A DNA stretch of 64,000 nt from Novosphingobium marinum (lineage in GTDB: Bacteria > Pseudomonadota > Alphaproteobacteria > Sphingomonadales > Sphingomonadaceae). Every line of letters starts with the position of its first letter. The stretch's first letter is position 1. The DNA lies in NCBI RefSeq assembly GCF_013408095.1, contig NZ_JACBZF010000006.1, forward strand, positions 62,001 through 126,000, in the 5' to 3' direction. Both the position numbers and the translations under genes were made by a program. Below the pieces are notes generated by a model. The model was given only the letters and a program-made list of their open reading frames with translations, made no database searches and was not told where the DNA came from. Positions 900-33,490 of this stretch are shown here, one piece after another.

Positions 900-1841
900 T
901 CACGGCCGAGGCGGAATTTGCCTGCTCAGTTCGCCGTAAAGCCGCTCGACATCTTCACGGCGGCACAGGCCAGTGCCAGGCGACAGTACGGCGGCAGCGC
1001 CTGCCGCCATGCCGTAGGCGAAGGCATCTTGCTCATCGCGGCCCTGCGCCAAAGCGAGTGTCATCGCCGCGACGAAGCTGTCGCCAGCGCCGACCGCGCT
1101 CTTCGCGACCACGTCGAGCGCCGGCTGACGTAGCGCGGCTTGAGCGGTCACGAGCAGCGCACCGTCGCGCCCAAGCGTCAGGGCCACCATCTCTGCCGAA
1201 CCAGCATCAATGAGTTCCCTGGCCGCCGCCTCTTGTGCCGCGCCGTCGGCGAGCCTGCGTCCGACCAGCGCCTCGAGTTCGCCAAGGCTGGGCTTCACCA
1301 GGTGGACGCCGCGAACAAGCCCGGCACGAAGCGCGCTTCCCGACGTATCGAGAACCAGTCGAATTCCCTTGCGGTGCGCCAGGGCAGCTACGGTCTCATA
1401 GAAATCGTCGGGAACAGCACGCGGCAAGCTGCCGCTGGCGACGAGGTATTCGCAATCGATATCTTCGAGGGCCTCCAGGATTGCGCGCCATTCCCACTCC
1501 ATCACGAGCGGGCCCGCGGGGACGAAGCGATATTCCTCGCCGCTCGAACGTTCAAAGACTGCGTGACTGATGCGGGTATGGTCCGCGATCGGTACACGAC
1601 GGTGTGCGATCAATGCGGTATCGAGAAGGTCGTCGAGCACACCGCCGGTCGCGCCGCCGGCCAGATACATCGCAAGTACAGGGCCACCCAGCTCCCTGAT
1701 GACCCGAGCCACATTGATCCCGCCCCCACCAGGATCATAGCGTTCATCGGACGTTCGAATCTTGTGAACCGGTCGCACGATGTCCGCCTCGGCGGAGCCG
1801 TCGATCGACGGGTTCAGAGTCAATGTGACAATCGTCTTCAT
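900..1841 (-). CDS. pfkB: PfkB-family sugar-phosphate kinase (phosphofructokinase-like), copy 1
   Basis: The product (313 aa) is a ribokinase/PfkB-fold kinase, most like 6-phosphofructokinase II or 1-phosphofructokinase, phosphorylating a fructose phosphate with ATP in the cytoplasm. Seen in the sequence: N-terminal TLTLNPSIDG, the PfkB signature GGGGINVARV at about residues 41-50, and the C-terminal catalytic/anion-hole motif SAVGAGDSF. The ATG at 1841 is preferred over upstream starts because GGGAGGAA lies just upstream of it. It is divergent from the beta-PGM/trehalose phosphatase gene, which supplies glucose-6-phosphate. A paralogue lies at 25037-25975. Which fructose phosphate is used cannot be told from sequence. 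Confidence 0.88.
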   Translation of the reverse strand: MKTIVTLTLNPSIDGSAEADIVRPVHKIRTSDERYDPGGGGINVARVIRELGGPVLAMYLAGGATGGVLDDLLDTALIAHRRVPIADHTRISHAVFERSSGEEYRFVPAGPLVMEWEWRAILEALEDIDCEYLVASGSLPRAVPDDFYETVAALAHRKGIRLVLDTSGSALRAGLVRGVHLVKPSLGELEALVGRRLADGAAQEAAARELIDAGSAEMVALTLGRDGALLVTAQAALRQPALDVVAKSAVGAGDSFVAAMTLALAQGRDEQDAFAYGMAAGAAAVLSPGTGLCRREDVERLYGELSRQIPPRP

Positions 1842-2286: not shown

Positions 2287-3861
2287 ATGAGCCCTGGTCC
2301 GGCCGATCCGCATGAAGAGGGTTACGCGGCCTTCCTCTTTGACCTTGACGGCGTGGTCACCAATACGGCGCAGCTGCATGCAGCGGCATGGAAGCAATTG
2401 TTCGACGAATTCCTTGCCCAGCGTACAAACCGGCGCGGCAAGCCATATCGCGCGTTCGGAGAAGAGGACTACCGACGCTTCATCGATGGCATGCCCCGAT
2501 ACGAGGGAGTGCGCAGCTTCCTCGTATCGCGCAAGATCAGCCTGCCCCATGGCGATCCTGCCGATCCGCCTGATCGCGAGACGATCTGTGGTCTCGGCAA
2601 CCGCAAGAATCGTTTCTTCCAGGAGCAGCTGGCAGATAGCGGCGTAGAAGTCTTCGAAACCAGCGTTGCCTTCATCCGAGAGCTTCGCCGTCAAGGCGTG
2701 AAAACCGCTCTCGTCTCCTCAAGCAAGAACGCATCGGCTGTCCTCGATGCAGCCGGTCTGAAAGGGATTTTCGACGTGCGGATCGACGGCGTGGAAGCCG
2801 AACGGCTTTCGCTGGCAGGAAAGCCGCGGCCAGATACCTTTCTCGAAGCAGCGCGGCGCCTGGAAACGCCCCCGCAACACTCGGTTGTCATAGAAGATGC
2901 CATCGCCGGTGTAGCAGCCGGCAGGGCGGGCGGCTTCGGACTCGTGATCGGTATCGACCGGACCGGCGTTGCGGCTGCCATGAAAGCAAAAGGTGCCGAT
3001 ATCGTGGTTGAGGATCTTGCCGAACTGGAGCTTCGCCCGATTCCTCCGATCCAGAACCATCAGACCGCCGATCTTCTACCCGACGCCCTCTCCTGCACGG
3101 CCGGCATATGCGCACTATTTTCCAAGAAGCGTCCGGCCGTTTTTCTCGACTACGACGGCACGCTGACGCCGATCGTCGCCCGGCCAGAACTTGCCGTCCT
3201 GTCCGCCGAAATGCGGGGGATCCTCGCGGATCTTGCCTCGCATTGTCATGTCGCCATCGTCAGCGGGCGCGACCGCGCGGAGGTGGCTCGTCTGGTCGGC
3301 CTTGACGGTCTCGTCTATGCTGGAAGTCATGGCTTCGACATCGCAGGTCCCGATGGCTTGCATGAGGAGCATGAAGGCGCTTCCGCCTTTCTTTCGGCGC
3401 TGGACCGTGCCGAAGCACTGCTCCAGGCCGAGATTGGCGACATCGAAGGCGTTCTGCTCGAACGCAAGAAGTTCGCCATCGCTGTCCACTACCGTCTGGT
3501 GGCGCGAAGGCAAATCACGCGAATCAAACGCGCCGCGGAGACGGCGGCTGAACGCCATGGCCTGAGGCAAACGACCGGCAAGAAGGTTTTCGAGCTGCGT
3601 CCGGATTTGGACTGGGACAAGGGCAAAGCCGTTCTCTGGCTATTGTCCGCGCTCGATCTCGAAGCAGAAGACGTCGTGCCGCTCTATGTCGGCGACGACG
3701 ATACGGACGAAGACGCGTTTGCCGCACTGTCAGGTCGGGGGATCGGCATCCTGGTGACGAACGCTGCCCGCCATACCTTAGCGCAGTATAAATTGTCGGA
3801 CACCCAGGCGGTCGAGCAGTTTCTGGGCTCCCTCTCTCGAAAGCTGGCGCGTCGTGGCTAG
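2287..3861 (+). CDS. Fusion of beta-phosphoglucomutase and trehalose-6-phosphate phosphatase
   Basis: The product (524 aa) has two HAD-fold domains. The first (about 10-250) has nucleophile motif DLDGVVTN at residue 19 and late motif EDAIAGVAAGRAGGFG, typical of beta-phosphoglucomutase (beta-G1P to G6P). The second (about 275-520) has DYDGTLTP at residue 288, VSGRDRAEV, and GDDDTDEDAF at 469, typical of OtsB (trehalose-6-P to trehalose). The ATG at 2287 is chosen because homology begins just after it and GGAG lies 13 nt upstream. The stop overlaps the GH65 gene by 8 nt. Together the two genes could turn trehalose-6-P into trehalose, phosphorolyse it, and recover G6P. No otsA is seen in the window. 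Confidence 0.9.
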   Translation: MSPGPADPHEEGYAAFLFDLDGVVTNTAQLHAAAWKQLFDEFLAQRTNRRGKPYRAFGEEDYRRFIDGMPRYEGVRSFLVSRKISLPHGDPADPPDRETICGLGNRKNRFFQEQLADSGVEVFETSVAFIRELRRQGVKTALVSSSKNASAVLDAAGLKGIFDVRIDGVEAERLSLAGKPRPDTFLEAARRLETPPQHSVVIEDAIAGVAAGRAGGFGLVIGIDRTGVAAAMKAKGADIVVEDLAELELRPIPPIQNHQTADLLPDALSCTAGICALFSKKRPAVFLDYDGTLTPIVARPELAVLSAEMRGILADLASHCHVAIVSGRDRAEVARLVGLDGLVYAGSHGFDIAGPDGLHEEHEGASAFLSALDRAEALLQAEIGDIEGVLLERKKFAIAVHYRLVARRQITRIKRAAETAAERHGLRQTTGKKVFELRPDLDWDKGKAVLWLLSALDLEAEDVVPLYVGDDDTDEDAFAALSGRGIGILVTNAARHTLAQYKLSDTQAVEQFLGSLSRKLARRG

Positions 3862-6280
3862 TTGGACCCTTGCCTATGACGGCTTCGACCCGGACCAGGA
3901 AGCCTTGCGCGAGGCGCTGTGCACGCTCGGCAACGGCTATTTCGCAACCCGTGGCGCGGTGGAAGAGAGCGATGCGGACGAAACCCACTATCCCGGCACG
4001 TACCTGGCGGGCGGATACAATCGTCTGGTGACGGATATTGCCGGGCGGCCGGTTGAAAACGAGGATCTCGTCAACCTGCCGAACTGGCTCCCGCTCACCT
4101 TCCGGCCGGAGGGCGGCGAGTGGCTCAATCTGCCCAGCACCCAGATCCTTGTCTACCGCCAGGAACTGGACCTGGAACAAGGCGTGCTCCGGCGCGTGAT
4201 GCGCGTGCGCGACCGCGAAGGGAGGGAAACGCATCTCACCGCCCGCCGTCTCGTCCACATGGGTTCGCCCCACCTCGCCGCGATCGAATGGACGCTGCTA
4301 CCAGACAACTGGTCGGGGGGCATCGAAGTGCTGTCCGCTCTCGACGGACGAGTGATCAACTGCGGCGTTACGCGCTACCGCCAGCTCGATGGCAAGCACC
4401 TCATCCCATTGATCGCCGAGGAGCTTGGTGAGGACGGACTCCTTCTCGTCGCTGAGACCAGCCAATCGCGTATCCGGATCGCCGAGGCGGCCCAAACTCG
4501 CGCTTACAGCAACAACGAACGGATAAAGAGCGAACGCCAGTTCCGGCAGGATCACGGTTATGCCGCTCACGCGCTCTCGTTCGAGGTGGCGGAAGGAAGC
4601 CCCGTCACGATCGAAAAGATTGTCGCGCTACACACTTCGCGTGACCGGGCTATTTCGAGTCCCGAGCAGGCGGCGCGGAACACGCTGCGCAAGGCAGGGC
4701 GCTTTGCGGCGCTGCTCGAGGATCACGCCCGCGCCTGGTCGCAGCTGTGGCGCCGCTGCGACATCACTATGGAGGGAAGACAGCGAACGCAGATGATCCT
4801 GCGGCTGCATATCTTTCATTTACTGCAGACCGTTTCACCGCACAGCGTCGATCTCGACGCCGGTGTGCCCGCGCGTGGCCTTCATGGCGAGGCGTATCGC
4901 GGTCACATCTTCTGGGACGAACTCTTCATCTTCCCTTTCTTCAACCTGCGCATCCCCGAGATCACGCGCGCGCTGCTGTGCTACCGGCATCGCAGGCTGC
5001 CCATGGCACGATGGCTGGCGCACGAAAGCGGATACCGCGGCGCCATGTACCCGTGGCAGAGCGGCAGCGACGGGCGGGAGGAGACGCAGACGCTCCATCT
5101 CAACCCCAAATCCGGCCGCTGGTTGCCCGACAACTCGCACCTGCAACGTCATGTCAACGCCGCCATCGCGTACAATGTCTGGCGCTATTACCAGGCGACG
5201 GGAGATCACGAGTTCCTGTCGTATTACGGCGCGGAAATGCTATTCGAGATCGCCCGATTCTGGGCGAGCATTGCGGTCTTCAACCCAATTCGCGGCCGAT
5301 ACGAAATTCGCGGCGCAATGGGCCCGGACGAATTCCACGATCGCTATCCGTGGTCGGATACGCCCGGACTCGACAACAACGCCTACACCAATGTCATGGC
5401 AGCCTGGGTGCTCGGTCGCGCATTGGAGGCCCGCAATCACCTCGATGCTGAACGGCGAACCGAACTCGACGAATCGCTCGGTCTCAGCGCGGAGGACCTC
5501 GCCGCCTGGGATGAGATCGGCCGCAAGCTGATGGTGCCGTTCCACGAGGGGGTGATCAGCCAATTCGAAGGTTATGAAAGGCTGCTGGAGTTCGAGTGGG
5601 AGGCTTACCGAGAAAAGTACGGAGACATTCGCCGGCTCGATCGCATCCTTGAGGCCGAAGGAGACACCGTCAATCGCTACAAGGCATCAAAGCAGGCCGA
5701 TGTGCTGATGCTGTTTTATCTCTTTTCATCCGACGAACTGGGACATCTGTTTAACCATCTTGGCTATAGCTTTGAGAAAGAGCTGATCCCGCGAACTGTC
5801 GATTACTATCTGCGACGAACCTCCAACGGCTCGACGCTGAGTGGGATTGTGCATTCCTGGGTTCTGGCCCGATCGGACCGAGCGGAATCCTGGATGCAGC
5901 TGAAAGACGCGCTGGAGAGTGACATTGCCGATGTTCAGGGAGGTACGACCCCAGAGGGCATTCATCTTGGTGCCATGGCCGGCACGGTTGATCTGATCCA
6001 GCGCGGGCAGACCGGACTGGAAATTCGCGATGACACGCTGCGGCTCGACCCTTGCCTTCCGCACGAGCTGCAAGGTCTGAGCTTTCGCATTCGCCACCGC
6101 GGTCAATGGCTCGATGTCGAGATCAAAGGCGGCCGCATCACCGTGTCTGCATCCGAGAGCTGGGATGGACCGAGCCGGCTTGTGATTGGCGGCAAAAGCT
6201 ACCCTCTGGGCGCGGGCGAAGTCCGTCAGGTCGCTTGCCATTACCCACAGCGTGGTGATGATCGGGCTGAAGGCGGCTAA
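3854..6280 (+). CDS. Glycoside hydrolase family 65 phosphorylase (trehalose/kojibiose phosphorylase-like), copy 1
   Basis: The product (808 aa, usual GH65 length) should cleave an alpha-linked disaccharide with phosphate, releasing beta-glucose-1-phosphate and glucose in the cytoplasm. Seen: N-terminal TLGNGYFATRGA, the (alpha/alpha)6-barrel stretch HGEAYRGHIFWDELFIFPFF, the catalytic acid in GPDE (Glu493), and a phosphate/substrate stretch KASKQADVLMLFYLFS. The start is GTG at 3854 inside the end of the previous gene, an 8-nt overlap that suggests translational coupling. The adjacent beta-PGM and trehalose phosphatase domains make trehalose the most likely substrate; this is inference from context. 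Kojibiose or nigerose phosphorylase activity is possible. Confidence 0.9.
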   Translation: MASWTLAYDGFDPDQEALREALCTLGNGYFATRGAVEESDADETHYPGTYLAGGYNRLVTDIAGRPVENEDLVNLPNWLPLTFRPEGGEWLNLPSTQILVYRQELDLEQGVLRRVMRVRDREGRETHLTARRLVHMGSPHLAAIEWTLLPDNWSGGIEVLSALDGRVINCGVTRYRQLDGKHLIPLIAEELGEDGLLLVAETSQSRIRIAEAAQTRAYSNNERIKSERQFRQDHGYAAHALSFEVAEGSPVTIEKIVALHTSRDRAISSPEQAARNTLRKAGRFAALLEDHARAWSQLWRRCDITMEGRQRTQMILRLHIFHLLQTVSPHSVDLDAGVPARGLHGEAYRGHIFWDELFIFPFFNLRIPEITRALLCYRHRRLPMARWLAHESGYRGAMYPWQSGSDGREETQTLHLNPKSGRWLPDNSHLQRHVNAAIAYNVWRYYQATGDHEFLSYYGAEMLFEIARFWASIAVFNPIRGRYEIRGAMGPDEFHDRYPWSDTPGLDNNAYTNVMAAWVLGRALEARNHLDAERRTELDESLGLSAEDLAAWDEIGRKLMVPFHEGVISQFEGYERLLEFEWEAYREKYGDIRRLDRILEAEGDTVNRYKASKQADVLMLFYLFSSDELGHLFNHLGYSFEKELIPRTVDYYLRRTSNGSTLSGIVHSWVLARSDRAESWMQLKDALESDIADVQGGTTPEGIHLGAMAGTVDLIQRGQTGLEIRDDTLRLDPCLPHELQGLSFRIRHRGQWLDVEIKGGRITVSASESWDGPSRLVIGGKSYPLGAGEVRQVACHYPQRGDDRAEGG

Positions 6281-10147: not shown

Positions 10148-11362
10148 TCATCTTCGCAGCGCCACGACGCCGGGCAGCGCCTTACCCTCTAGCCATTCGA
10201 GGAACGCCCCACCTGCGCTCGACACGTAACTGAACCGGTCGGCAACGCCCGCGTGGTTGAGCGCTGCGGCCGTGTCACCCCCGCCCGCGACTGCTCGGAG
10301 GCGCCCAGCATCTGCCAAATCGGCGATCGCCCCGGCAAGGGCTACCGTTCCCTGGTCGAAAGGCGGAACCTCGAACGCTCCAACCGGACCATTCCAGACG
10401 ACGGTCCGCATGTGCTTCAGCGCCTTCTCAAGAAGCGCTACTGTCGCGGGACCGACGTCGAGGATCATTTCGTCTGCGCCGACCCGCTCAACCGAAACCG
10501 TACGCGAGACGGCGCCGGCGGTAAACTCGGTGGCTACGACCACGTCGATCGGCAGGAAAATCGTGCAATCGGCCTCGTTAGCACGGTGGATAACCTCACG
10601 GGCATTGTCCAGCATTTCGCGTTCGGCCATCGATCTGCCTATTGGCCGGTCCTGGGCAGCCAGAAACGTGTTGGCCATCGCACCCCCAATGCCGATGGCC
10701 TGCATCTTGGCGACCAAATTGACGAGGAGATCGAGCTTGGTGGAAACCTTGGCTCCGCCGACAAGCGCGAACACCGGGCGATCCGGGTTTTCGAGAACCA
10801 GGCTCAGCGACTTGATCTCAGCCTGCAGAGCGCGCCCTGCCACCGCCGGCAGCACGTGCGCGATGCCCTCCGTCGATGCATGAGCACGATGCGCTGAGGA
10901 AAATGCGTCGTTTACGTATATGTCGCCCAGGTTTGCGAACTGCGCGACCAGCTCTGGATCGTTGGTCTCCTCACCCGGATGGAACCGCGTGTTTTCCATG
11001 AGCAGTAGATCGCCCGGCGCCGCGGCTTTGACGGCCTCTCTCGCATGGCCATCGCGCCAGTTCGTCGCGACGAAACGAACCGGCATGCCCATCGCTTTCT
11101 CCAGCGCGCCCGCGACGGGCTCGAGACTCATATCGGCAACCACCTTTCCCTTCGGACGACCCAGGTGAGAAAGGAGGACAACTTTCGCGCCCTTCGCGGT
11201 CAGTTCGACAAGCGTAGGGATAATGCGCTCGATCCGGGTGGCGTCGGCCACGACCCCGTCTTCGACGGGCACATTGAGGTCGACCCTGACGATGGCGGTC
11301 TTGCCGCCAAAGTCGATATCATCGAGTGTCCGCAAGGATGAGGCAGAGGAGGGCCCGAGCAT
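10148..11362 (-). CDS. pgk: Phosphoglycerate kinase
   Basis: The product (404 aa, full length) matches phosphoglycerate kinase, which makes ATP from 1,3-bisphosphoglycerate and ADP. Seen: N-terminal DLNVPVEDGVVADATRIERI, LLSHLGRPKG, the substrate stretch LLMENTRFHPGEE, YVNDAFSSAHRAHAST, the hinge GGAKVSTKLDLL, and the C-terminal nucleotide stretch VAGGGDTAAALNHAG. A pgk apart from the usual gap-pgk operon and inside an island of sugar phosphorylase and fermentation genes is likely an extra copy. It stands alone on its strand, converging with the DUF305 gene. Confidence 0.95.
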   Translation of the reverse strand: MLGPSSASSLRTLDDIDFGGKTAIVRVDLNVPVEDGVVADATRIERIIPTLVELTAKGAKVVLLSHLGRPKGKVVADMSLEPVAGALEKAMGMPVRFVATNWRDGHAREAVKAAAPGDLLLMENTRFHPGEETNDPELVAQFANLGDIYVNDAFSSAHRAHASTEGIAHVLPAVAGRALQAEIKSLSLVLENPDRPVFALVGGAKVSTKLDLLVNLVAKMQAIGIGGAMANTFLAAQDRPIGRSMAEREMLDNAREVIHRANEADCTIFLPIDVVVATEFTAGAVSRTVSVERVGADEMILDVGPATVALLEKALKHMRTVVWNGPVGAFEVPPFDQGTVALAGAIADLADAGRLRAVAGGGDTAAALNHAGVADRFSYVSSAGGAFLEWLEGKALPGVVALRR

Positions 11363-14521: not shown

Positions 14522-15595
14522 TTAAGGTGTGATGGCCACCTTGAGTACGCCGTCACGCTGGTGGGCGAAGAGTTCATAGGCTGCTTCGATGTCGTCGAGC
14601 TTGTAGCGATGGGTAACCATGGGCCGGAGGTCTACCCTCCCCGCCGCCAGGACGTTGATGAGTCGGCGCATGCGTTCCTTTCCGCCCGGACACAGCGTCG
14701 TTACGATGCTGAGATCGCCAAGCCCGGCGGCAAACGCATCCAGCGGGACATTTATATCCGCGGAATAGACGCCAAGACTCGAAAGCGTTCCACCTGGGCG
14801 CAGCACCCTCAGGCATGCCTCGAATGTTGCCTGGCTTCCAAGCGCCTCGATCGCGACGTCCACCCCCCGCCCGTCGGTCAGGCGCAGTATCTCGTCCACA
14901 GGATCGACGGTGCCGGCGTCCACCACGGCATCAATACCCAGCGCTTTCGCGGTCAGGAGACGTGCGGGCAAACGATCGACCCCAATGACGAGGGTTGCCC
15001 CGGCAAGCTTCGCGCCGGCCGCAGCGCAGAGGCCAATAGGCCCCTGCGCGAATACCGCGACGGTATCGCCGATCCGGACGCCGCCTCGCTCTGCCCCTCC
15101 AAAGCCCGTCGACATGATATCCGGGCACATCAACACCTGCTCGTCCGTCAGACCGTCGGGGACAGGGGCGAGGTTAGCCATGGCGTCCGGAACCAGCACA
15201 TACTCCGCCTGGCAGCCGTCGATCGTGTTACCGAGCTTCCATCCGCCGATCGATTTCCAGCCATGGCGAGCGTCCGGTCCGTCTTGCGAATGAAAGCCGG
15301 CAAGACAGGCGTTGCTGTGGCCACTGGGTGAGATCGCGCCTGCGATCACCCGCTGACCCTCGTGGTACCCGGTGACGGCCGAGCCCAGCTTTTCGATAAT
15401 CCCGACCGGCTCGTGTCCAACGGTAAGGCCGGGGGCAACCGGGTATTCGCCTTTCAGAATGTGCACGTCGGTGCCGCAGATGGTGGTAGTGGTGATCCGC
15501 ACAAGCGCATCGAGTGCCCCGACTTCCGGAATCGGCTTCTCATCGAGCACAATCCGCCCCGGCTCCACGAACACCGCTGCCTTCATCTTCGCCAT
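14522..15595 (-). CDS. Zinc-dependent alcohol dehydrogenase (MDR family)
   Basis: The product (357 aa) is a medium-chain dehydrogenase. The catalytic zinc ligands fit CGTDVH (Cys at about 40) and GHEPVG (His at about 62). The NAD(P) site follows in the Rossmann fold with VAVFAQGPIGLCAAAGAKLAG and an acidic residue in VIGVDR that favours NAD(H). The segment GFHSQDGPDARHGWKSIGGW replaces the usual four-Cys structural zinc loop, as in NADP-dependent isopropanol-type and related enzymes. ATG at 15595 is chosen because AGGGA lies 6 nt upstream. It may reduce an aldehyde during fermentation in this island; the substrate is unknown. Confidence 0.88.
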   Translation of the reverse strand: MAKMKAAVFVEPGRIVLDEKPIPEVGALDALVRITTTTICGTDVHILKGEYPVAPGLTVGHEPVGIIEKLGSAVTGYHEGQRVIAGAISPSGHSNACLAGFHSQDGPDARHGWKSIGGWKLGNTIDGCQAEYVLVPDAMANLAPVPDGLTDEQVLMCPDIMSTGFGGAERGGVRIGDTVAVFAQGPIGLCAAAGAKLAGATLVIGVDRLPARLLTAKALGIDAVVDAGTVDPVDEILRLTDGRGVDVAIEALGSQATFEACLRVLRPGGTLSSLGVYSADINVPLDAFAAGLGDLSIVTTLCPGGKERMRRLINVLAAGRVDLRPMVTHRYKLDDIEAAYELFAHQRDGVLKVAITP

Positions 15596-18871: not shown

Positions 18872-19852
18872 TTAGGCGGCGAGCTTGCAGTGTTGCAAGC
18901 GCCGATGTTCGAGTGTCTTTCGCTTGATCCTTTCTCTTCGTTTGATGATGGCGGCAGCCCTGCCGAAGTAGGCATCGGCGGGTGTCACATTGTCCAGGCT
19001 CTCGTGGTAGCGCTGGTGGTTATAGTGCTCGACGAAGGCCTCGATCTGCTGTTGGAGATCGCCGGGCAGGAAGTAGTTTTCCAGCAGCACGCGGTTCTTC
19101 AGGGTCTGGTGCCAGCGTTCGATCTTGCCCTGCGTCTGCGGATGGAAGGGAGCGCCGCGCACATGGCTCATCCTGTTTGCCTCGATGTATTCGGCTAGTT
19201 CCCCGGCAATGTAGCTGGGGCCATTGTCCGACAGCAGGCGGGGCCTGTGCAGCACGTTGGCGTGGTTGCAGCCTGAAGCTGCCAGCGCCATATCGAGCGT
19301 GTCAGTGACGTCCTCGGCTCGCATGGTGGTGCAGAGCTTCCAGGCGATGATGTAGCGTGAGTAATCGTCGAGCACGGTCGAGAGATAGACCCAGCCCCAT
19401 CCGATGATCTTGAAGTAGGTAAAATCCGTCTGCCACATCTCATTGGGTCGAGAGGTCTGCGTGTGGAACGCCTCTGCCGCCTTGATCACCGTGTAGGCCG
19501 GGCTGGTGATCAGATCATGGGCCTTCAGCAGCCGGTAAACCGTGGCTTCGGACACGAAGTAGCGCTTCTCGTCGGTGAAGCGCACCGCCAGCTCGCGGGG
19601 ACTGAGATCGGTCTGCTCCAGAGCCATCTCGACGATCTGGTCCTGCACCTCGGGCCCAATACGGTTCCACACCCGGCTCGGCGCTGAAGGACGGTCCTGG
19701 AGCGCCTCCGGCCCACCTTCGAGGTAGCGGTCATACCAGCGATAGAAGGTCCGCCGTGCCACGCCGAGCTGGTCCAGCGTACGCTTGGCGGGCAGGTGCG
19801 ACTGCTCGACGATCCTGATGATCTCCAGCTTCTCGGATGCGGGATACCTCAT
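18872..19852 (-). CDS. IS3-family transposase OrfB (integrase catalytic part)
   Basis: The frame encodes 326 aa from the ATG at 19852 and continues open upstream to 19924. The rve-type integrase core is visible: NEMWQTDFTYFKIIGWG (first Asp), LLSDNGPSYIAGELAEY (second Asp), and HPQTQGKIERWHQTLK (Glu). An N-terminal HTH part (RRTFYRWYDRYLEGGPEAL) precedes it. It overlaps the orfA stop by 4 nt. OrfB is read in the -1 frame relative to orfA, and a run of seven A at the overlap (SLLKKS region of orfA, CTCAAAAAAAGC) is a plausible slip site making the OrfAB fusion transposase. Confidence 0.93.
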   Translation of the reverse strand: MRYPASEKLEIIRIVEQSHLPAKRTLDQLGVARRTFYRWYDRYLEGGPEALQDRPSAPSRVWNRIGPEVQDQIVEMALEQTDLSPRELAVRFTDEKRYFVSEATVYRLLKAHDLITSPAYTVIKAAEAFHTQTSRPNEMWQTDFTYFKIIGWGWVYLSTVLDDYSRYIIAWKLCTTMRAEDVTDTLDMALAASGCNHANVLHRPRLLSDNGPSYIAGELAEYIEANRMSHVRGAPFHPQTQGKIERWHQTLKNRVLLENYFLPGDLQQQIEAFVEHYNHQRYHESLDNVTPADAYFGRAAAIIKRRERIKRKTLEHRRLQHCKLAA

Positions 19853-20223
19853 TCGTCGTCTCCCCCATCCGCGATCATGCTTTTTTTGAGCAGACGGTTC
19901 TCCAGCGTCAGGTCCGCCACGCATTCCTTCAGATCGCGCGCTTCACGGCGCAGATCCTTTACCTCGTCGGTGGTAGCAGCACGGGCTGTATCGCCAGCAA
20001 GCCTGCGCTTGCCGGCCTCCATGAACTCCTTGGACCAGGTGTAATACAGGCTCTGTGCGATCCCTTCACGGCGGCACAGCTCGGCAATGGAGTCATCGCC
20101 GCGTAGGCCATCGAGCACGATGCGGATCTTGTCTTCAGCAGAGAAATGCCGACGGGTCTTGCGGCGGATGTCCTTCACCACCTGCTCGGCAGGCAATTTG
20201 GGCTTTGAGGATTTGGGCTTCAT
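19849..20223 (-). CDS. IS3-family transposase OrfA (DNA-binding part)
   Basis: The product (124 aa) is the HTH_8-type OrfA: RRHFSAEDKIRIVLDGLRG, then ELCRREGIAQSLYYTWSKEF, then a leucine-zipper-like helix (LRREARDLKECVADLTLENRLLKKS). OrfA binds the terminal repeats and partners with OrfB. An A7 slippery run lies near its 3' end. The start ATG is at 20223. Confidence 0.9.
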   Translation of the reverse strand: MKPKSSKPKLPAEQVVKDIRRKTRRHFSAEDKIRIVLDGLRGDDSIAELCRREGIAQSLYYTWSKEFMEAGKRRLAGDTARAATTDEVKDLRREARDLKECVADLTLENRLLKKSMIADGGDDE

Positions 20224-20308: not shown

Positions 20309-21523
20309 GACTGGTCAGGCAATGTCGAGCGCGCGGCCGCTCAAGGGGAACGCCTGCTCGGTTTCGCCATGCTCCGGCTCGAACAGTCAAGAGAGCGCAT
20401 TGCGCACGCAGATCTGAAGAATGCACGGATGCTGGGATTGATGGGGTTCGTCGATCCGCCGCGCGAGGAGGCGAAGCGGGCGATCGCCGAATGCCGATCG
20501 GCCGGCATCGCGATCAAGATGATCACCGGCGATCATGCCGCGACCGCCATGGCGATCGCCCGGCAGTTGAACCTTTCGGACAATCCGCAGGCTTTGACCG
20601 GCACAGAGATCGAAGCATTGGACGACGACGAGCTGTCCGGGCGTGTAGAGCAGGTCTCGGTGTTCGCGCGCGCCAGCCCCGAGCACAAGCTGCGTATCGT
20701 GCGCGCGCTGCAATCGCATGGCCATATCGTCGCGATGACCGGTGACGGGGTCAACGATGCGCCGTCGCTCAAACAGGCCGACGTCGGCACCGCCATGGGC
20801 ATCGCAGGGACCGAGGCCGCGCGCGAAGCCTCCGAGATGGTGCTGCTCGACGACAATTTCGCATCGATTGTAGCCGCCGTACGCGAAGGCCGCACTGTCT
20901 ACGACAATATCCGCAAGGTCATTGCCTGGACCGTGCCAACCAATGGAGGCGAGGCAATAGTGATCGTCCTCGCCGGCTTCGCGCTGCCAATGACTGCGAC
21001 GCAAATCTTGTGGGTCAATCTTGTCACCGCGGTGACGCTGGGTCTCGTCCTTGCCTTCGAACCCCCAGAGCCGGGTGTCATGGAAAGGCCTCCGCGCAGG
21101 CGCGATACCCCTCTGCTGACCCCGCTCCTCGTCTGGCGAGTGGCACTGGTTTCGGCATTGTTCGCGGGCGTTTCGCTGTTGATTTTCTTTGGCGCGCAAT
21201 CGCTGGGTGCCAGTGTGGAAAAGGCCCGCACGATGGTGGTCAACATGCTGGTGGTTGCCGAGATCGCCTATCTTTTCAATGTTCGCTTCCTGCACATGCG
21301 TTCACTCACGTTGAAGGGGGCGCTCGGCACCAGACCCGTGCTGGTCGCGCTGGCGATTGTGATCGTCGCGCAGATCGCGTTTACTTACTTGCCGCTCATG
21401 CAAATCGTTTTTGAAACCGAGGCGCTTACCATTACCGAAGGAGCGATCATCGTGCTGATCGGCTTCGGATTGCTGCTGCTTCTGGAAGCCGAGAAGCGGT
21501 TCACCCGCAGATATACGATGTGA
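20309..21523 (+). pseudogene. Cation-transporting P-type ATPase, C-terminal part
   Basis: The frame is open from the very end of the IS3 element (ERAAAQGERLLGFAML). It carries the C-terminal half of a P2-type ATPase: GLMGFVDPPREEAK, MITGDHAATAMAIA, the hinge VAMTGDGVNDAPSLKQADVG, and a six-helix membrane domain with PTNGGEAIVIVLAGFALPMT and QILWVNLVTAVTLGL. The N-terminal membrane helices, A-domain and the phosphorylated DKTGT are missing, so it cannot pump. An ATG at 20369 could start a shorter peptide. The family resembles Ca2+/Mg2+-type or MgtA-like pumps. The gap to GH65 copy 2 is 32 nt, so it was likely first in that operon. Confidence 0.85.
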
Positions 21524-21555
21524 TATCCATCCCACCTACTAACCAGGAAAAATCC

Positions 21556-23958
21556 ATGTTGCGCCCACGCCTTACTCCTCCCAGAGACATCTTCCCGGTC
21601 GACCCGTGGGGAGTGGGGGCGGCGCGGTTCGATCGTGACCTTCTTCAGGCATATACCGGGCAAGCGGAGACGATGTTTGCGCTCTCCAACGGGTATCTCG
21701 GCATCCGCGGGACGATGGACGAGGGACAACCGGTGGAAGAGCCGGGTACCTATCTGAACGGCTTCTACGAAACGCGGCCGATTACCTACGGTGAGAGCGC
21801 CTACGGTTTTCCCGACACCGGCCAGAGCATGCTTGTCTGCCCCGATGGCACCCCCATACGCCTGACCGTCGATGATGAAATCTTCAATCTCGCCACAGCC
21901 GAGGTGCTGGAGTTCTCGCGCCGCCTCGATCTGGCGAAAGGCGTGCTCACACGCAACACCACGTGGAGAACGCAGCGGGGGCGCCGTCTTACGCTGAAAA
22001 CGACACGTCTGGTCTCGCTCGACATGAAGCACGTCGCTGCGATCCACTGGGAACTCGTGCCCGAGGACGACGTGGACTTGGTGATTTCGTCGGAGATCGT
22101 GGAGCGCGCTCCGTTGCCACTCGAAGACTTCGACCCGCGACTGGCCGAAACTCCGGAAGGCAGCATCCTGTGTACGACCGGTGGGTCGGTGGACGGCCTG
22201 CGAGCCGTGCTGGGCTTTGTGACCTGCCGCTCGCGGCTCGCGCTCGGCTGCGCGATGGATCACGTGCTCGAAACGTCCTCACCGTGCGAGACGGTCGCGG
22301 AACGCAAGGAGACCGGCGCCGCGGTGACGATGCGAATAGCCGAACGCGCGGGCGTGCCGATCCGGCTCACCAAGTTCATGGCCTATCATTACGGGCTTGA
22401 AGACGGCGACGACATGGTTGCCGCTGCCAGAGCAAGTCTCGACAAGGCCGTCGCACGCGGTTTCCCCGCCCTGCTTGCAAGACAGGAGGAGAACGTGGCG
22501 CAATTCTGGGCCGGTGCGGACGTGGAAGTGGAGGGCGACCCTGCGATCCAGCAGGTCATACGTTGGAACCTGTTTCAGCTCATGCAAGCGTCTTTCCGTG
22601 TGCATGGTCATGGCATCGGCGCGCGGGGCCTGACGGGGCGCAGCTACGAAGGCCACTACTTCTGGGACACCGAGATCTACGTATTGCCGTTCCTGAACTA
22701 CACCGCGCCCGATACCGCGCGCGCGGTGCTCAAATTCCGTTACGATATGCTTCCCCAGGCACGAGCGCGCGCGCGCGAGCTGGGTCATCGGGGCGCAACC
22801 TTTCCCTGGAGGACAATCAACGGGAACGAGGCCTCGGCCTATTACGCGGCCGGTACCGCGCAATATCACATCAACGCCGACATCGCCTATGCACTGAATA
22901 GATATGTCGAAGTGTCCGGAGATGACGAGTTCCTCGCCCGCTACGGCGCCGAGATCCTGGTCGAGACGGCACGCTTCTGGCTCGACCTCGGTTTCTTTTC
23001 GGCTCGTCGGGAGGGCAGGTTCTGCATCAACGCGGTGACGGGGCCGGACGAATACAATGCGGTAGTTGATAACAACTACTTCACCAATCTGATGGCTCAG
23101 GAAAACCTGCGCCTCGCAGCCAAAGCCGTGCTAACTCTCGACAAGGATGCGCGCGCAGCGCTGGTCGAGCGGACAGGCCTGGCGCCCGAAGAGCCCGCGG
23201 CATGGAGCGAAGCCGCGGATCGCATGTACCTACCATATGACGAGCGGCTCGGCGTCCATCCGCAGGACGACAGCTTCCTCGACAAGGAGGTCTGGGATTT
23301 CGAGAACACCCCGGAGGAGAATTATCCCCTTTTGCTCAACTATCACCCCTTGAATCTCTACCGATCGCAGGTTATCAAGCAGGCCGATACGCTGCTGGCC
23401 ATGTTCCTGATGAACGGTCATTTCGCCGATGCCGAAAAGAAGCGGGATTTCGACTATTACGACCCGATCACCACTCATGACAGTTCATTGTCTGTCTGCA
23501 TCCAGTCGATCATAGCGAGTGAGATCGGCTATAGTCGAAAGGCCTTCGACTACTTCAATTTCGCCGCCTCGATGGATCTCTCCGACGTCGGCGGCAATGT
23601 AAAGCATGGCGCACATGTCGCCTCTATCGGAGGCACCTGGATGGCGCTCGCCTACGGGTTCGCCGGTCTGCGCGACGGAAGTGGCGAAACAAGGTTCCGC
23701 CCCCGCCTGCCCGCCGAATGGACACGCTTGCAAATTCCGCTCACGATCCGCGGGCGGCGCATTCGCGTGTCGATCGATCACGAGGAGACGGTCTACCGGC
23801 TGGAAGCCGGCGATGCGCTAGAAATCATACACGAAGATGAAACTGTGCAGCTGACCCCTGCCGTTCCGGAAGCGCGACGACCGACGACGAAAATGGCGCC
23901 CGATCGGAAAGCGGGCTCCGGGGCGGTCGATCCCGCCGAACCCGACGATAGCACGTAA
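21556..23958 (+). CDS. Glycoside hydrolase family 65 phosphorylase (maltose/trehalose phosphorylase-like), copy 2
   Basis: The product (800 aa) is a second GH65 enzyme releasing beta-glucose-1-phosphate from an alpha-glucosyl disaccharide. Seen: ALSNGYLGIRGTMDEG near the N-terminus, RGLTGRSYEGHYFWDTEIYV, the catalytic acid in NAVTGPDEYNAVVDNNYFTN (Glu499), and the binding stretch KQADTLLAMFLMNGHF. These match maltose/trehalose phosphorylases more closely than copy 1 does. The ATG at 21556 is used, with a weak CAGGAAAAA site upstream. A beta-PGM gene converges 20 nt downstream and should convert its product to G6P. Confidence 0.92.
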   Translation: MLRPRLTPPRDIFPVDPWGVGAARFDRDLLQAYTGQAETMFALSNGYLGIRGTMDEGQPVEEPGTYLNGFYETRPITYGESAYGFPDTGQSMLVCPDGTPIRLTVDDEIFNLATAEVLEFSRRLDLAKGVLTRNTTWRTQRGRRLTLKTTRLVSLDMKHVAAIHWELVPEDDVDLVISSEIVERAPLPLEDFDPRLAETPEGSILCTTGGSVDGLRAVLGFVTCRSRLALGCAMDHVLETSSPCETVAERKETGAAVTMRIAERAGVPIRLTKFMAYHYGLEDGDDMVAAARASLDKAVARGFPALLARQEENVAQFWAGADVEVEGDPAIQQVIRWNLFQLMQASFRVHGHGIGARGLTGRSYEGHYFWDTEIYVLPFLNYTAPDTARAVLKFRYDMLPQARARARELGHRGATFPWRTINGNEASAYYAAGTAQYHINADIAYALNRYVEVSGDDEFLARYGAEILVETARFWLDLGFFSARREGRFCINAVTGPDEYNAVVDNNYFTNLMAQENLRLAAKAVLTLDKDARAALVERTGLAPEEPAAWSEAADRMYLPYDERLGVHPQDDSFLDKEVWDFENTPEENYPLLLNYHPLNLYRSQVIKQADTLLAMFLMNGHFADAEKKRDFDYYDPITTHDSSLSVCIQSIIASEIGYSRKAFDYFNFAASMDLSDVGGNVKHGAHVASIGGTWMALAYGFAGLRDGSGETRFRPRLPAEWTRLQIPLTIRGRRIRVSIDHEETVYRLEAGDALEIIHEDETVQLTPAVPEARRPTTKMAPDRKAGSGAVDPAEPDDST

Positions 23959-23978: not shown

Positions 23979-24716
23979 TCAGAGAACTTCCACAACGGAT
24001 AGATCGGGCACCACCATGTCCGCACCTGCTGCAAGCAAGGCCTCGGCATGCTGGCCACGACCGACGCCGATGACGGTGTGGAAACCGGCTTTCCGGCCCG
24101 CCGCGACACCGGCAATCGCGTCCTCGAAGATCGCCGCCCGCGTCGGCTCGACTTCCAGCCGCTGCAGTGCCTCGCGAAACAGCGCCGGGTCCGGTTTGCT
24201 TGGCAGATCAAGTCGTGCTGAGTCGACCCCGTCTACCCGTATCTGGACAAAGCTGTCCAACCCGGTGGCCTTGAGTACCGCCCCTGCGTTAGCACTGGAG
24301 GAAGCGACCGCCACCCGAATATCTGCTCGCCGCAAAGCCTGAAGCAGGGCCCTGGCACCTAGCAGCGGCGCAGAATCGCACCGAAGTCGCTCCTGTACCG
24401 CCTCGTTCTTGCGCCGGGACAACCCCTGTACCGTTTCAGCATCGGGCGGGTCGGACTCCGATCCTTCGGGTAATTCGATGCCGCGCGAGGCAAAGAAGGC
24501 GCGAACGCCGTCCTCGCGGCGGCGGCCATCGACGAACGCCCGGTAATCCTGTTGGCTGAAATCGGCCAGGGGCGGGCGCCTTTGGCGCAGGAAGGCGTCG
24601 AAGGTTTCCTTCCACGCTGCTTCGTGCAGACCAGCCGTGTTTGTAAGTACGCCATCAAGATCGAACACTGCTGCGTCGAGGTGTTCGGGCGAAAGCGACA
24701 CTTCCATGCGGGTCAA
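23979..24716 (-). CDS. pgmB: Beta-phosphoglucomutase
   Basis: The product (245 aa) is a HAD-fold beta-phosphoglucomutase converting beta-glucose-1-phosphate to glucose-6-phosphate. Seen: nucleophile and acid/base motif AAVFDLDGVLTNTAGLHEAAW, a helical cap domain, VAVASSSANAGAVLKATGL, KPDPALF and late acidic motif FEDAIAGVAAGRKAGF. The start appears to be TTG at 24716, because GGAGA lies 6 nt upstream; the ATG nine bases later has too long a spacing. It converges with the GH65 gene. It is a separate-chain counterpart of the first domain of the fusion at 2287. Confidence 0.92.
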   Translation of the reverse strand: MTRMEVSLSPEHLDAAVFDLDGVLTNTAGLHEAAWKETFDAFLRQRRPPLADFSQQDYRAFVDGRRREDGVRAFFASRGIELPEGSESDPPDAETVQGLSRRKNEAVQERLRCDSAPLLGARALLQALRRADIRVAVASSSANAGAVLKATGLDSFVQIRVDGVDSARLDLPSKPDPALFREALQRLEVEPTRAAIFEDAIAGVAAGRKAGFHTVIGVGRGQHAEALLAAGADMVVPDLSVVEVL

Positions 24717-25036: not shown

Positions 25037-25975
25037 ATGCTAAGTATTGTGACGCTTACGATGAACCCAACCCTCGACGTTGCGTTCGAAATCGATCGCA
25101 TCCTGCCAGTGCACAAGATGCGCGGAGGCAATGAGCGACATGATCCGGGCGGCGGCGGTATCAACGTTGCGCGAGTATTTGTACGGCTGGGAGGCAACGC
25201 CCGTTGCTGCTATCTGAGCGGAGGCGCGGCTGGTGCTGCTCTCGATTGGCTAGTCGATTTGCATCAGCTGGTGCGCAACCGGATCGCGATCGTTGGCGAA
25301 ACCCGGGTAAGCACATCGATATTTGAGCGGGACAGCGAGAGTGAATATCGCTTCGTAACCGACGGACCAATCATATCGGCTGGAGAGTGGCAGGAATGCG
25401 AAGCTGCCGTGGCGGAAATCAGCTGTGATTACCTCGTCGCCAGCGGTTCGCTCCCGCAGGGCGTGCCGAATGATTTCTATGCCCGCATCGGCAGATTGGC
25501 TAAGAAGCGGAACATCCGGTTTGTCCTCGACAGCTCCGGAGCCGGATTGGCCCACGGCCTGGAAGGCGGCGGCGCCTTTCTGGTGAAGCCGAGCATTGGC
25601 GAACTGCGCGCGCTGACCGGCAAGCAATTGCAGGAAGAGGAAGCGATTATCGAAGCCGCAGAAGGCATAGTCCGGCGTGGAGAAGCCGAGCATGTCGCAG
25701 TGACAATGGGTCACGACGGCGCGATCCTGACGAATGGAAATGGAACAACCCGGCTCCCCGCGCTTCCCGTGGAAGCCATGAGTGCCGTCGGAGCAGGAGA
25801 CAGTTTTCTGGCGGCAATGGTCCATGCATTCTCGGCTGGGCGTGAGCCTGTCGACGCCTTGCGCTTCGGCATGGCGGCCGGCGCTGCCGCCGTGCTTACT
25901 CCCGGTACCGACCTTGCCCGGGCAGACGATATCCATCGGCTTTATGGAGATATGTCAAAACACCACAGCTTCTGA
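25037..25975 (+). CDS. pfkB: PfkB-family phosphofructokinase, copy 2
   Basis: The product (312 aa) is a PfkB/ribokinase-fold kinase. Seen: TLTMNPTLDVAFEIDRILPV, PGGGGINVARVFVRLGG (sugar-phosphate binding), VASGSLPQGVPNDFY, LVKPSIGELRALTG and MSAVGAGDSFLAAMVHA (anion hole and base). It resembles the minor 6-phosphofructokinase II of enterobacteria. GGAG lies about 12 nt upstream of the ATG. It is convergent with the lactate permease gene and divergent from the beta-PGM gene. It is a clear paralogue of the 900-1841 gene but not a near-identical copy. Confidence 0.9.
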   Translation: MLSIVTLTMNPTLDVAFEIDRILPVHKMRGGNERHDPGGGGINVARVFVRLGGNARCCYLSGGAAGAALDWLVDLHQLVRNRIAIVGETRVSTSIFERDSESEYRFVTDGPIISAGEWQECEAAVAEISCDYLVASGSLPQGVPNDFYARIGRLAKKRNIRFVLDSSGAGLAHGLEGGGAFLVKPSIGELRALTGKQLQEEEAIIEAAEGIVRRGEAEHVAVTMGHDGAILTNGNGTTRLPALPVEAMSAVGAGDSFLAAMVHAFSAGREPVDALRFGMAAGAAAVLTPGTDLARADDIHRLYGDMSKHHSF

Positions 25976-33200: not shown

Positions 33201-33290
33201 CTCGGCAGGGCCATCGCCGACATAGTAGTCGTCCTTGGCGAAGTAGTTCGCTGCTCCGCCTGCGGAGGAAACCGATGCGACGGACAGCAT
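30264..33290 (-). CDS. traI: MobF-family conjugative relaxase/helicase (TraI/TrwC-like)
   Basis: The product (1,008 aa) nicks one strand at oriT, stays bound to the 5' end and unwinds DNA. The N-terminal relaxase domain (about 1-300) has candidate Tyr nucleophiles YFAKDDYYVGD (16-25) and the metal-binding 3H motif H145...DPQNHTHAVI (156-158). A SF1 helicase follows: Walker A VIQGVAGAGKTTLI, VLVLDEASLV (Walker B), and late motifs NMHQAQGDTRD. The length is close to R388 TrwC (about 966). It overlaps the upstream 66-aa gene by one base. All key residues appear present. Confidence 0.95.
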   Translation of the reverse strand: MLSVASVSSAGGAANYFAKDDYYVGDGPAELSEWGGKGAEALGLSGPVTKEDFEKVLDGKLPDGTIVNGNENRRAGIDLTFSMPKSASLMAQLGGDKRVLTAQEAAVKATMTYLEKHFAEARDYSRNPNGEAVQTGKLLYALFQHDTSRKLDPQNHTHAVIAAMTQDKAGNWKALWNGEVWKNNSVLGSIYNAALRTNLEKLGYRTELTGKHGQFEIQGVSREVIEAFSQRRLDILATAEKLGRRANETEFLRGVTKNTRDPKLNPDDKQALRQEWAKRAEGLEFDAKAMVEQTRARIDNGREGPLGTAERVRGVIAAVQETAQLYTRPADELTTNGLQRMGLTPTQLRTELVTASAVRVIGERETSWTRGELVKTALDLGARGVTVEGVEARMEALVDKGQMLPGKSARLDGAIEKYTTPEHVAIERATLANVAAGKDASPGMIEAGGAPERLRAVSGEYDLNAEQIAAGTLALSSDDRTVVIQGVAGAGKTTLISAIASVAREEGRDVIGLAFANKMVNDLRNETEIRTANGEAVKEGIEAKTVSSFVNQHLRGALHGSGPTFEASRAALEGKVLVLDEASLVANKPMNDLLTIANRLGVEKLVMIGDKAQLQPIEAGKSFSLIQTDYPALARLDTSLRQRTEHMKEASGLARAGRFRESFASLGDKVVEAGKDHLEVAAKTWLDLPPEDRERTAIYSSGRDARASLNRMVQDGLRAEGSIKGEGLALDTLRPAHATREELRYATTYAKGQLLEVMRQNAPGGLSRGRYDVEGLDAKGRVLLRDENGKLKRFDPSRIDPVDKRDALRLSEKTKETIHEGDKVRWTEKDDTRKLMKSEEAKVLGIKDGVVTVESRHGETVELKQNDKMLERMGLAYAINMHQAQGDTRDMAIGEMHSSARHLSNQRLALVMMTRVRDDITIVTNDRDQLLAQIGRNPGDKTSALETLGEKRIENVRTERAAPDFNPKIPEHLKVGEASADRLPSVDKESLRAVPQIDLPERNIERAR

Positions 33291-33490
33291 CAGACGCTCC
33301 CGAGCCTGATTACTCTTCGAAGCATTCGGCCGCGGCCGCGGAGGAGCCAGTCGGCGCTTATGCCGAATTGCTCGCCGCCGATCCCGGCTCTCACCTCATT
33401 GTCGAGGAACCGCGTCTTCGTAGCTTGATGGGGCAGCGCGGCGATCATGTGGTCGCTCCGGCTTCGGCGCATGGATGGAGAGGGGGTCAC
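33290..33490 (-). CDS. Small hypothetical protein between coupling protein and relaxase
   Basis: The frame encodes 66 aa: SDHMIAALPHQATKTRFLDN and EQFGISADWLLRGRGRMLRR. It starts with a GTG that overlaps the traD stop (GTGA) and ends in a TGATG overlap with the traI start, so all three genes are locked in one translationally coupled chain. No domain is recognised. Confidence 0.55.
   Translation of the reverse strand: MTPSPSMRRSRSDHMIAALPHQATKTRFLDNEVRAGIGGEQFGISADWLLRGRGRMLRRVIRLGSV

What the first reader, a model, noticed from the sequence alone, without database searches (positions are those of the whole stretch)
2287..6280. Beta-PGM, trehalose phosphatase and GH65 in a two-gene, translationally coupled arrangement
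The fusion gene carries beta-PGM and OtsB domains, and the GH65 gene starts inside its 3' end. From memory, mycobacterial OtsB1 (Rv2006) has the same three domains in one chain of similar total length, so this may be a split form. It would take trehalose-6-P through trehalose to beta-G1P plus glucose and then G6P. No otsA is present, so it may draw on a chromosomal trehalose-6-P pool.
Basis: partly seen in the sequence, partly recalled or inferred. Interest (0 to 1): 0.55.

Follow-up and report, generated by a model that had tools for sequence, protein, structure and literature searches.

The report
Possible UDP-glucose-free trehalose-making gene pair
Two overlapping plasmid genes encode three enzymes that together could make the protective sugar trehalose from glucose-6-phosphate without UDP-glucose, a route that seems widespread in bacteria but that I did not find described; it still needs a test-tube assay.

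Summary
Observation confirmed: 2287-3861 encodes a beta-phosphoglucomutase (bPGM)-trehalose-6-phosphate phosphatase (TPP) fusion, and a GH65 gene (3854-6280) starts 8 nt inside its end. The assumed specificity is probably wrong: the GH65 carries the published fingerprint of trehalose-6-phosphate (T6P) phosphorylase (DQGQDE), not trehalose phosphorylase (TRIGPP). The set is not peculiar to this plasmid: among the 80 best loci kept by a capped genome scan, TPP is fused to or just upstream of GH65 in 69, in several layouts and many phyla. The T6P synthase OtsA was not found in 24 of 69 such genomes, many of them draft bins, against 1 of 96 with a TPP elsewhere; 23 of the 24 also lack PTS_EIIC. 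Best reading: bPGM makes beta-G1P from G6P, GH65 joins it to G6P giving T6P, TPP releases trehalose: synthesis without UDP-glucose. Enzyme identities are well supported; the direction is inferred. The OtsB1 likeness holds for domain order and length. This genome has OtsA and another OtsB on contig C4, so it does not itself decide the direction.

The parts
2287..3861 (+). bPGM-TPP fusion gene (524 aa)
2326..2934 (+). bPGM-type HAD domain (residues 14-216); D19, D21, H31, S144-N148, K179, E203, D204 present
   Evidence: conservation over 67 loci
3142..3804 (+). trehalose-6-phosphate phosphatase domain (residues 286-506); HAD motifs D288/D290, S326-R328, K445, G469-D471/D474-E475 present
3854..3861 (+). 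8-nt overlap: GTG start of GH65 inside the stop of the fusion gene
   Evidence: same overlap annotated in L006
3854..6280 (+). GH65 gene (808 aa), predicted trehalose-6-phosphate phosphorylase: fingerprint DQGQDE, phosphate site Arg/His/Ser-Thr, general acid E493
900..1838 (-). context: PfkB-type hexose kinase (1-PFK family), divergent from the pair
   Evidence: own genome has no PF00365 phosphofructokinase match
10148..11362 (-). context: phosphoglycerate kinase
21520..23958 (+). context: second GH65 (812 aa), fingerprint SRIA-H, not the T6P phosphorylase type
23979..24716 (-). context: stand-alone bPGM-type HAD protein next to the second GH65

Best explanation
The pair is a three-enzyme cassette centred on trehalose-6-phosphate. 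[quoted passage not shown] (2) The GH65 protein is a reversible T6P phosphorylase: beta-G1P + G6P <-> T6P + Pi. (3) The C-terminal domain of the first protein removes the phosphate of T6P irreversibly (TPP), leaving trehalose. Run this way the cassette makes trehalose from two G6P with no UDP-glucose and no OtsA, and the phosphatase sets the direction. Inferred from sequence: the three activities. Inferred from gene linkage and from genomes in which OtsA was not found: the synthetic direction. Nothing was assayed. In this organism the cassette is an extra on what looks like a plasmid, beside OtsA and another OtsB on contig C4, and lies among central-carbon genes (PfkB, PGK and, upstream of the window, enolase, a GAPDH-like protein and PEP synthase).
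For: Identity of the GH65: fingerprint at CsKP positions 64/392/394/402/416/585 = DQGQDE in P0002 and in 9lb6; De Beul 2021 (PMC8537180; sections Results, Discussion and figures/tables read) gives DQGQDE for T6P phosphorylase, confirmed by them on the Caldithrix enzyme, which made T6P from beta-G1P + G6P, and TRIGPP for trehalose phosphorylase. Best PDB match 9lb6, 466 bits, against 365 for kojibiose phosphorylase. General acid Glu and Arg/His/Ser-Thr or Ser-Ser at the phosphate site in 80 of 80 loci, so phosphorylase rather than hydrolase by the criteria in PMC8626586 (passages). Five arginines (R349, R381, R432, R594, R597) are each kept in 88 to 92 of 92 relatives including 9lb6 and are not Arg in the kojibiose and maltose phosphorylases or P0003, though R349 aligns with Lys in the kojibiose enzyme: candidate binders of the 6-phosphate. 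Linkage: TPP in 69 of 80 loci, catalytic TPP residues in 68 of 69. Source of T6P: OtsA not found in 24 of 69 cassette genomes (recounted in 97), including a MAG held as one 4.62-Mb chromosome record (Binatia OY282457, L080), 3 of 18 named isolates, 4 of 4 Binatia/Binatota rows, 4 of 4 Nitrospira/Nitrospirae rows and 4 of 5 planctomycete rows; PTS_EIIC not found in 23 of those 24. Control: 95 of 96 genomes whose TPP is outside a cassette have OtsA. Contrast: genome G336 has a DQGQDE GH65 about 580 bp from a PTS_EIIC gene and near a bPGM, with no TPP and no OtsA match, the expected breakdown layout. Feasibility: in bPGM-deficient L. lactis the T6P phosphorylase runs in reverse, joining beta-G1P and G6P to T6P (PMC7608592, passages); a cocktail of maltose phosphorylase, bPGM and T6P phosphorylase (with yeast) makes T6P (173 g/L, Table 1 passage of PMC13121652).
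Against: Direction is not shown by sequence. 45 of 69 cassette genomes do have OtsA, as do 2 of the 3 cassette genomes in the phylum sample (this one and G087), so T6P for breakdown is available there. Two TPP-less relatives nested among the TPP-linked ones (L016, L021) keep bPGM + GH65 and have OtsA, as expected if the same enzyme can serve breakdown. Many OtsA-less genomes are MAGs of unstated completeness; one of them (L039, G022) has a near-identical relative (L038, G021) that does have OtsA, so some absences are assembly gaps. The 69 and the 96 differ in phyla and assembly quality. Two OtsA-less cassette genomes, G003 (Halomonas) and G141, have a weak PTS_EIIC match (74.2 and 75.8 bits). 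The bPGM equilibrium favours G6P (recalled), so step 1 is uphill and needs pull. TIGR01990 (bPGM equivalog) is not reached: 107 bits against 189. At the phosphate site Arg stands where I place the phosphorylases' Lys, and Thr replaces one Ser in 70 of 80; which Lys it is in the published site is my inference from the alignment. In the one-chain Rhodococcus DK17 homologue the bPGM domain is degenerate (DLDD, no SSSKN) and L110 lacks it, so not every relative is self-sufficient. A review states that only OtsB2 of M. tuberculosis, not OtsB1 (Rv2006), has phosphatase activity (PMC11046441, passage), although PMC12090744 says no data were shown for that (passage).
Confidence: 0.55

Rival explanations
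1. Breakdown of T6P: OtsA-made T6P is phosphorolysed to beta-G1P + G6P and bPGM turns the former into G6P, as in Lactococcus; the TPP domain is a branch that diverts T6P to trehalose or limits the T6P level.
For: Same GH65 fingerprint as T6P phosphorylases; the lactococcal one serves breakdown (PMC7608592 passages). OtsA present in this genome and in 45 of 69 cassette genomes. TPP-less relatives L016 and L021 have OtsA. Neighbouring glycolytic genes fit carbohydrate use.
Against: Phosphatase and phosphorylase fused or adjacent and competing for one substrate would be wasteful; in 24 of 69 genomes no OtsA was found, and in 23 of those no PTS_EIIC, leaving no T6P source known to me. The PTS-linked GH65 of G336 lacks a TPP.
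Confidence: 0.22
2. One reading: TPP makes trehalose from T6P, GH65 phosphorolyses trehalose to beta-G1P + glucose, bPGM gives G6P. A maltose precedent, the maltose 6'-phosphate phosphatase MapP of Enterococcus faecalis, appears as a title in the reference list of PMC8537180 (paper itself not read).
For: All domains are present; the order of steps would make sense of a TPP; some GH65 enzymes do take trehalose.
Against: Fingerprint DQGQDE, not TRIGPP; no PTS_EIIC and no OtsA found to supply T6P in 23 of 69 hosts.
Confidence: 0.1
3. The GH65 and the phosphatase act on another phosphorylated alpha-glucoside, not T6P.
For: I know of no assay of a member of the TPP-linked clade (not searched for one by one); the window GH65 is distant from the Bacilli type, 38.5% identical to a Lactiplantibacillus relative.
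Against: T6P phosphorylase fingerprint and clade-specific arginines shared with 9lb6; a TPP over the trehalose-phosphatase equivalog cut-off in the partner protein.
Confidence: 0.1

Closest known systems
Mycobacterial OtsB1 (Rv2006), function called unknown in a 2024 review
   Different: Here two overlapping genes; bPGM residues intact here but degenerate in the Rhodococcus DK17 chain and absent in the R. qingshengii one. Rv2006 sequence was not fetched.
Lactococcus lactis T6P phosphorylase + bPGM (EC 2.4.1.216 pathway)
   Same: T6P phosphorylase-type GH65 plus a bPGM. The lactococcal sequence itself was not aligned; 9lb6 and a Lactiplantibacillus relative stood in.
   Different: The lactococcal pathway breaks down PTS-imported trehalose; here a TPP is fused in, and no PTS gene was seen among the neighbours examined.
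OtsA/OtsB trehalose synthesis
   Same: Ends with TPP acting on T6P.
   Different: T6P would come from a phosphorylase and beta-G1P instead of OtsA and UDP-glucose.
In vitro T6P synthesis with maltose phosphorylase, bPGM and T6P phosphorylase (Taguchi 2020, as described in PMC13121652)
   Same: Uses bPGM and T6P phosphorylase to make T6P without nucleotide sugar.
   Different: A designed cocktail fed by maltose, no phosphatase; I have not read the original paper.
GH65 trehalose phosphorylase (EC 2.4.1.64)
   Same: Same glycoside hydrolase family and beta-G1P product.
   Different: Different specificity fingerprint (TRIGPP).

Membership tests
GH65 T6P phosphorylase (EC 2.4.1.216) | GH65 N, catalytic and C domains | tested here: met
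   PF03636, PF03632, PF03633 all over cut-off
GH65 T6P phosphorylase (EC 2.4.1.216) | Fingerprint DQGQDE at six positions (PMC8537180) | tested here: met
   (local-pair MAFFT). In mafft --auto the fifth position reads W for P0002 and equally for 9lb6, so agreement with 9lb6 does not depend on the alignment but the letter D at 416 does
GH65 T6P phosphorylase (EC 2.4.1.216) | General acid Glu and phosphate-binding residues (Lys, His, two Ser in the solved phosphorylases) | tested here: met
   Glu and His kept; Arg for Lys and Ser-Thr for Ser-Ser, as in 9lb6; site described in PMC8626586 passages. The hydrolase general base position was not tested separately
GH65 T6P phosphorylase (EC 2.4.1.216) | Enzyme activity on T6P + Pi | not testable with these tools
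   assay needed
GH65 trehalose phosphorylase (EC 2.4.1.64) | Fingerprint TRIGPP | tested here: not met
   DQGQDE
Trehalose-6-phosphate phosphatase (OtsB) | TIGR00685 equivalog over cut-off and four HAD motifs | tested here: met
   199.3 over 68.05 bits; motifs
beta-phosphoglucomutase | TIGR02009 subfamily over cut-off and catalytic residues | tested here: met
   171.8 over 153.35 bits; residues
beta-phosphoglucomutase | TIGR01990 equivalog over cut-off | tested here: not met
   107.3 under 189.4 bits
OtsB1 (Rv2006) type | All three domains in one chain | tested here: not met
   two genes, different frames
OtsB1 (Rv2006) type | Direct sequence relation to Rv2006 | not tested
   Rv2006 not fetched; Rhodococcus chains used instead
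OtsA/OtsB pathway | OtsA in the same operon | tested here: not met
   only OtsA match of the genome is at C4:74812-76137

The most novel reading that the evidence does not exclude
bPGM + T6P phosphorylase + TPP is a natural, UDP-glucose-independent route of trehalose synthesis (2 G6P -> trehalose + 2 Pi), spread over many bacterial phyla as separate, half-fused and fully fused genes and on plasmids; related actinobacterial OtsB1 proteins of unknown function would belong to it as condensed forms.
Probability: 0.5. Interest if true: 0.8.

Novelty: new variant of a known kind. Interest (0 to 1): 0.6.

Why it matters
In the passages I saw, a 2025 review lists T6P phosphorylase only under T6P degradation (PMC12125463), and a 2024 review calls the function of OtsB1 unknown (PMC11046441). 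If the cassette works as proposed, it adds a trehalose-making route that saves a nucleotide sugar, explains why TPP occurs where OtsA is not found, gives OtsB1-type proteins a concrete, assayable function, and shows that such a route can travel on plasmids. OtsA-based predictions of who can make trehalose would miss these organisms.

Tried and rejected
Trehalose phosphorylase reading of the GH65: rejected on the fingerprint. Hydrolase reading, prompted by the PDB name 'Trehalose-6-phosphate hydrolase' for 9lb6: rejected because a phosphate site is kept; 9lb6 may be the T6P phosphorylase structure of Feng 2025, but that paper is not held and the link is a guess. A dead TPP domain: rejected, motifs intact. 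FNR-type control of the pair: boxes are at chance level in the window (18 found, 17.3 expected) and none lies just upstream of 2287. L097 (genome G125), which looked like a T6P phosphorylase without any T6P source, turned out to have another fingerprint, ARAPDR. The equilibrium constant 760 in PMC13121652 is given there for the overall maltose + polyphosphate reaction and again for the last step, so I do not rely on it. No structure prediction was run; it would not settle specificity or direction. Searches for prior proposals of the route: (listings seen; passages of four papers read); none found, in an open-access library only.

Counting notes. Rows dropped: 11 of 80 loci without a TPP found (3 P|G, 1 PG, 7 with neither; L046 and L068 of the 7 have under 1.4 kb upstream of GH65) are not in the 69. 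L017 was not held for the OtsA search; L016 and L021 (no TPP) both have OtsA. The 96 are 99 TPP genomes of 299 minus the cassette genomes G000, G087 and G141. The Fisher value (8.7e-10) ignores relatedness and is descriptive only; for the 18 loci that I took from their titles to be named isolates it is 3 of 18 against 1 of 96, p 0.012. The tree is a quick tree with some long branches; one-chain three-domain forms need at least 3 changes on it.
Full report
What is there. 2287-3861 encodes 524 aa with a bPGM-type HAD domain (14-216) and a trehalose-phosphatase domain (286-506); 3854-6280 encodes an 808-aa GH65 protein whose GTG start overlaps the preceding stop by 8 nt. A Croceicoccus marinus plasmid carries the same pair, 98% identical in both proteins, with the same overlap. 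The window is part of a 133,589-base contig (C6) of a 3.59-Mb genome in 22 contigs, and the contig also carries relaxase and coupling-protein genes.

What the GH65 probably does. GH65 specificity can be read from six co-varying positions (PMC8537180; sections Results, Discussion and figures/tables read). By alignment to the kojibiose phosphorylase 3wiq, P0002 reads DQGQDE, the T6P phosphorylase motif; trehalose phosphorylases read TRIGPP. The reference rows behave as published as far as they can be read: 3wiq EEAPWE (published EEAPxx), maltose phosphorylase 1h54 KV-N-S or KVFN-S (published KV[MF]NES; the fifth position falls in a gap). The best solved relative, 9lb6, is named a T6P hydrolase in the PDB but has the phosphorylase fingerprint and a phosphate site. 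One caution: the fifth letter depends on the alignment (D, W), always the same letter in P0002 and 9lb6.

How common the set is. Around these 80 the order bPGM-TPP-GH65 recurs: 46 with bPGM-TPP fused before GH65 (as here), 11 with three separate genes, 6 with all three in one frame, 3 TPP|GH65 and 3 TPP-GH65 in one frame without a bPGM found (L053 and L078 of these six are cut by a contig start), 3 bPGM|GH65, 1 bPGM-GH65 fusion, 7 with neither found (repeating). TPP is thus linked in 69 of 80. Record titles include Pseudomonas, Halomonas, Chelativorans, Desulfobacterales, Nitrospira, Planctomycetaceae, Pontibacter, Actinomycetota, Acidobacteria, Gemmatimonadales, Binatia and Atribacteria. On a quick tree, one-chain three-domain forms need at least 3 changes and three-gene forms at least 6. 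TPP catalytic motifs are complete in 68 of 69, the remaining row having a gap at motif I (L053 begins at a contig start). bPGM residues over 67 loci: D-x-D-G-V 67, H31 67, K179 66, E203-D204 65, and Lys or Arg at 147 in 60.

Why synthesis. A phosphatase and a phosphorylase that share T6P make a straight path only if the phosphorylase makes T6P. I tested whether T6P could come from elsewhere. OtsA (PF00982) was not found in 18 of 49 and 6 of 20 TPP-linked genomes, 24 of 69. PTS_EIIC (PF02378) was not found in 17 of the first 18 and in none of the other 6; the one exception, Halomonas jincaotanensis, has a weak match of 74 bits. As a control I took 299 genomes of the window's phylum, asked for at 95% completeness or more: 99 have a TPP, and only 2 of these lack OtsA, one of them (G141) being itself a DQGQDE cassette genome, with a weak PTS_EIIC match of 76 bits; outside cassettes it is 1 of 96. 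The OtsA-less cassette genomes include a MAG held as one 4.62-Mb chromosome record (L080), three of 18 named isolates (L015, L023, L030), 4 of 4 Binatia/Binatota rows, 4 of 4 Nitrospira/Nitrospirae rows (L031, L044, L060, L077) and 4 of 5 planctomycete rows (L043, L055, L056, L065; the Phycisphaerae bin L069 has OtsA). Against this, L039 and L038 are near-identical and only the latter's genome shows OtsA, so some MAG absences are gaps; no completeness figure is given for genomes reached through loci. A counter-arrangement exists: G336 has a DQGQDE GH65 about 580 bp from a PTS_EIIC gene, with a bPGM nearby but no TPP and no OtsA match, which fits import and breakdown. A Lactiplantibacillus plasmid locus (L106) has GH65 and pgmB and no gene annotated as TPP in the 14 kb held. 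Two TPP-less loci nested among TPP-linked ones (L016, L021) lie in genomes with OtsA, so the same GH65 may serve breakdown where OtsA feeds it.

Is it feasible? Yes from print. In bPGM-deficient Lactococcus the T6P phosphorylase runs in reverse, joining beta-G1P and G6P (PMC7608592, passages), the Caldithrix enzyme makes T6P, and a three-enzyme cocktail with bPGM and T6P phosphorylase has made T6P in bulk (PMC13121652, passages).

OtsB1. A 2024 review calls its function unknown (PMC11046441, passage); a 2025 proteome paper calls it DosR-regulated, found it only in carbon-starved cells, and says it is not biochemically characterised (PMC12090744, passages). The Rhodococcus DK17 one-chain relative lies near a universal stress protein, a response regulator and a GAF sensor kinase, has intact TPP motifs and a GH65 one letter off (SQGQDE), but a degenerate bPGM domain. 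A second Rhodococcus relative (L110) is TPP-GH65 without bPGM. In such forms the TPP-GH65 link outlives the bPGM domain; a separate bPGM would be needed. The window pair is a split and apparently complete version of this architecture. Whether Rv2006 itself has the fingerprint was not tested.

What this organism may do with it. The genome has OtsA and another OtsB on contig C4 (333,515 bases), so here the cassette is an addition. Its neighbours on C6 are PfkB, PGK and, upstream of the window, enolase, PEP synthase, a D-2-hydroxyacid dehydrogenase, a GAPDH-like protein and a Crp/Fnr-type regulator; the genome has no PF00365 phosphofructokinase match. This looks like a mobile central-carbon island, perhaps for energy-poor conditions, but no FNR-like site was found in front of the pair.

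Verdict. Observation confirmed. Enzyme assignment changed from trehalose phosphorylase to T6P phosphorylase (well supported, unassayed). Best mechanism: UDP-glucose-independent trehalose synthesis, 0.55; breakdown of T6P remains the main rival.

Noticed in passing
window 21520-23958: Second GH65 has fingerprint SRIA-H, close to but not the trehalose phosphorylase motif; L098 (KRIA-H) and L100 (TRIA-H) in other genomes are alike, so this may be an unassigned GH65 group.
   Followed up: partly
window 18872-20223 and 20369-21523: An IS3-type transposase region lies directly before a P-type ATPase of which only the last 384 aa remain (matches positions 482-852 of an 854-position profile): a truncated cation pump.
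   Followed up: no
own genome; window 900-1838 and 25037-25975: No PF00365 phosphofructokinase match in the genome, but two PfkB-type kinases in the window: the island may supply the missing glycolytic step.
   Followed up: partly
L010 (C6:44001-62000): Upstream of the window: enolase, PEP synthase, D-2-hydroxyacid dehydrogenase, CBS protein, GAPDH-like protein, Crp/Fnr-type regulator with an N-terminal cysteine cluster, ATP synthase alpha and gamma subunits.
   Followed up: partly
L010: FNR-like boxes (up to 2 mismatches) are 19 against 5.4 expected, 0 of 200 shuffles as high; one with a single mismatch (15482-15495) ends at the first base of the Crp/Fnr-type gene's ATG. Many of the others lie inside genes.
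   Followed up: no
L104 4239-9392 (Nitrobacter hamburgensis plasmid 2): bPGM-GH65 fusion followed with a 4-nt overlap by a HAD-IIB hydrolase, near phosphoketolase and glucokinase: perhaps the phosphatase partner replaced by another HAD type.
   Followed up: no
L009 8076-11642 and upstream frame: The annotated start of the Rhodococcus DK17 one-chain protein leaves out part of an open frame with a degenerate bPGM domain.
   Followed up: partly
PDB 9lb6/9lb7: Named T6P hydrolase, yet 9lb6 carries the T6P phosphorylase fingerprint and a phosphate site.
   Followed up: partly
window 30264-33290 and 33487-35913: TrwC-type relaxase and TraD-type coupling protein genes: the contig looks like a conjugative plasmid.
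   Followed up: no
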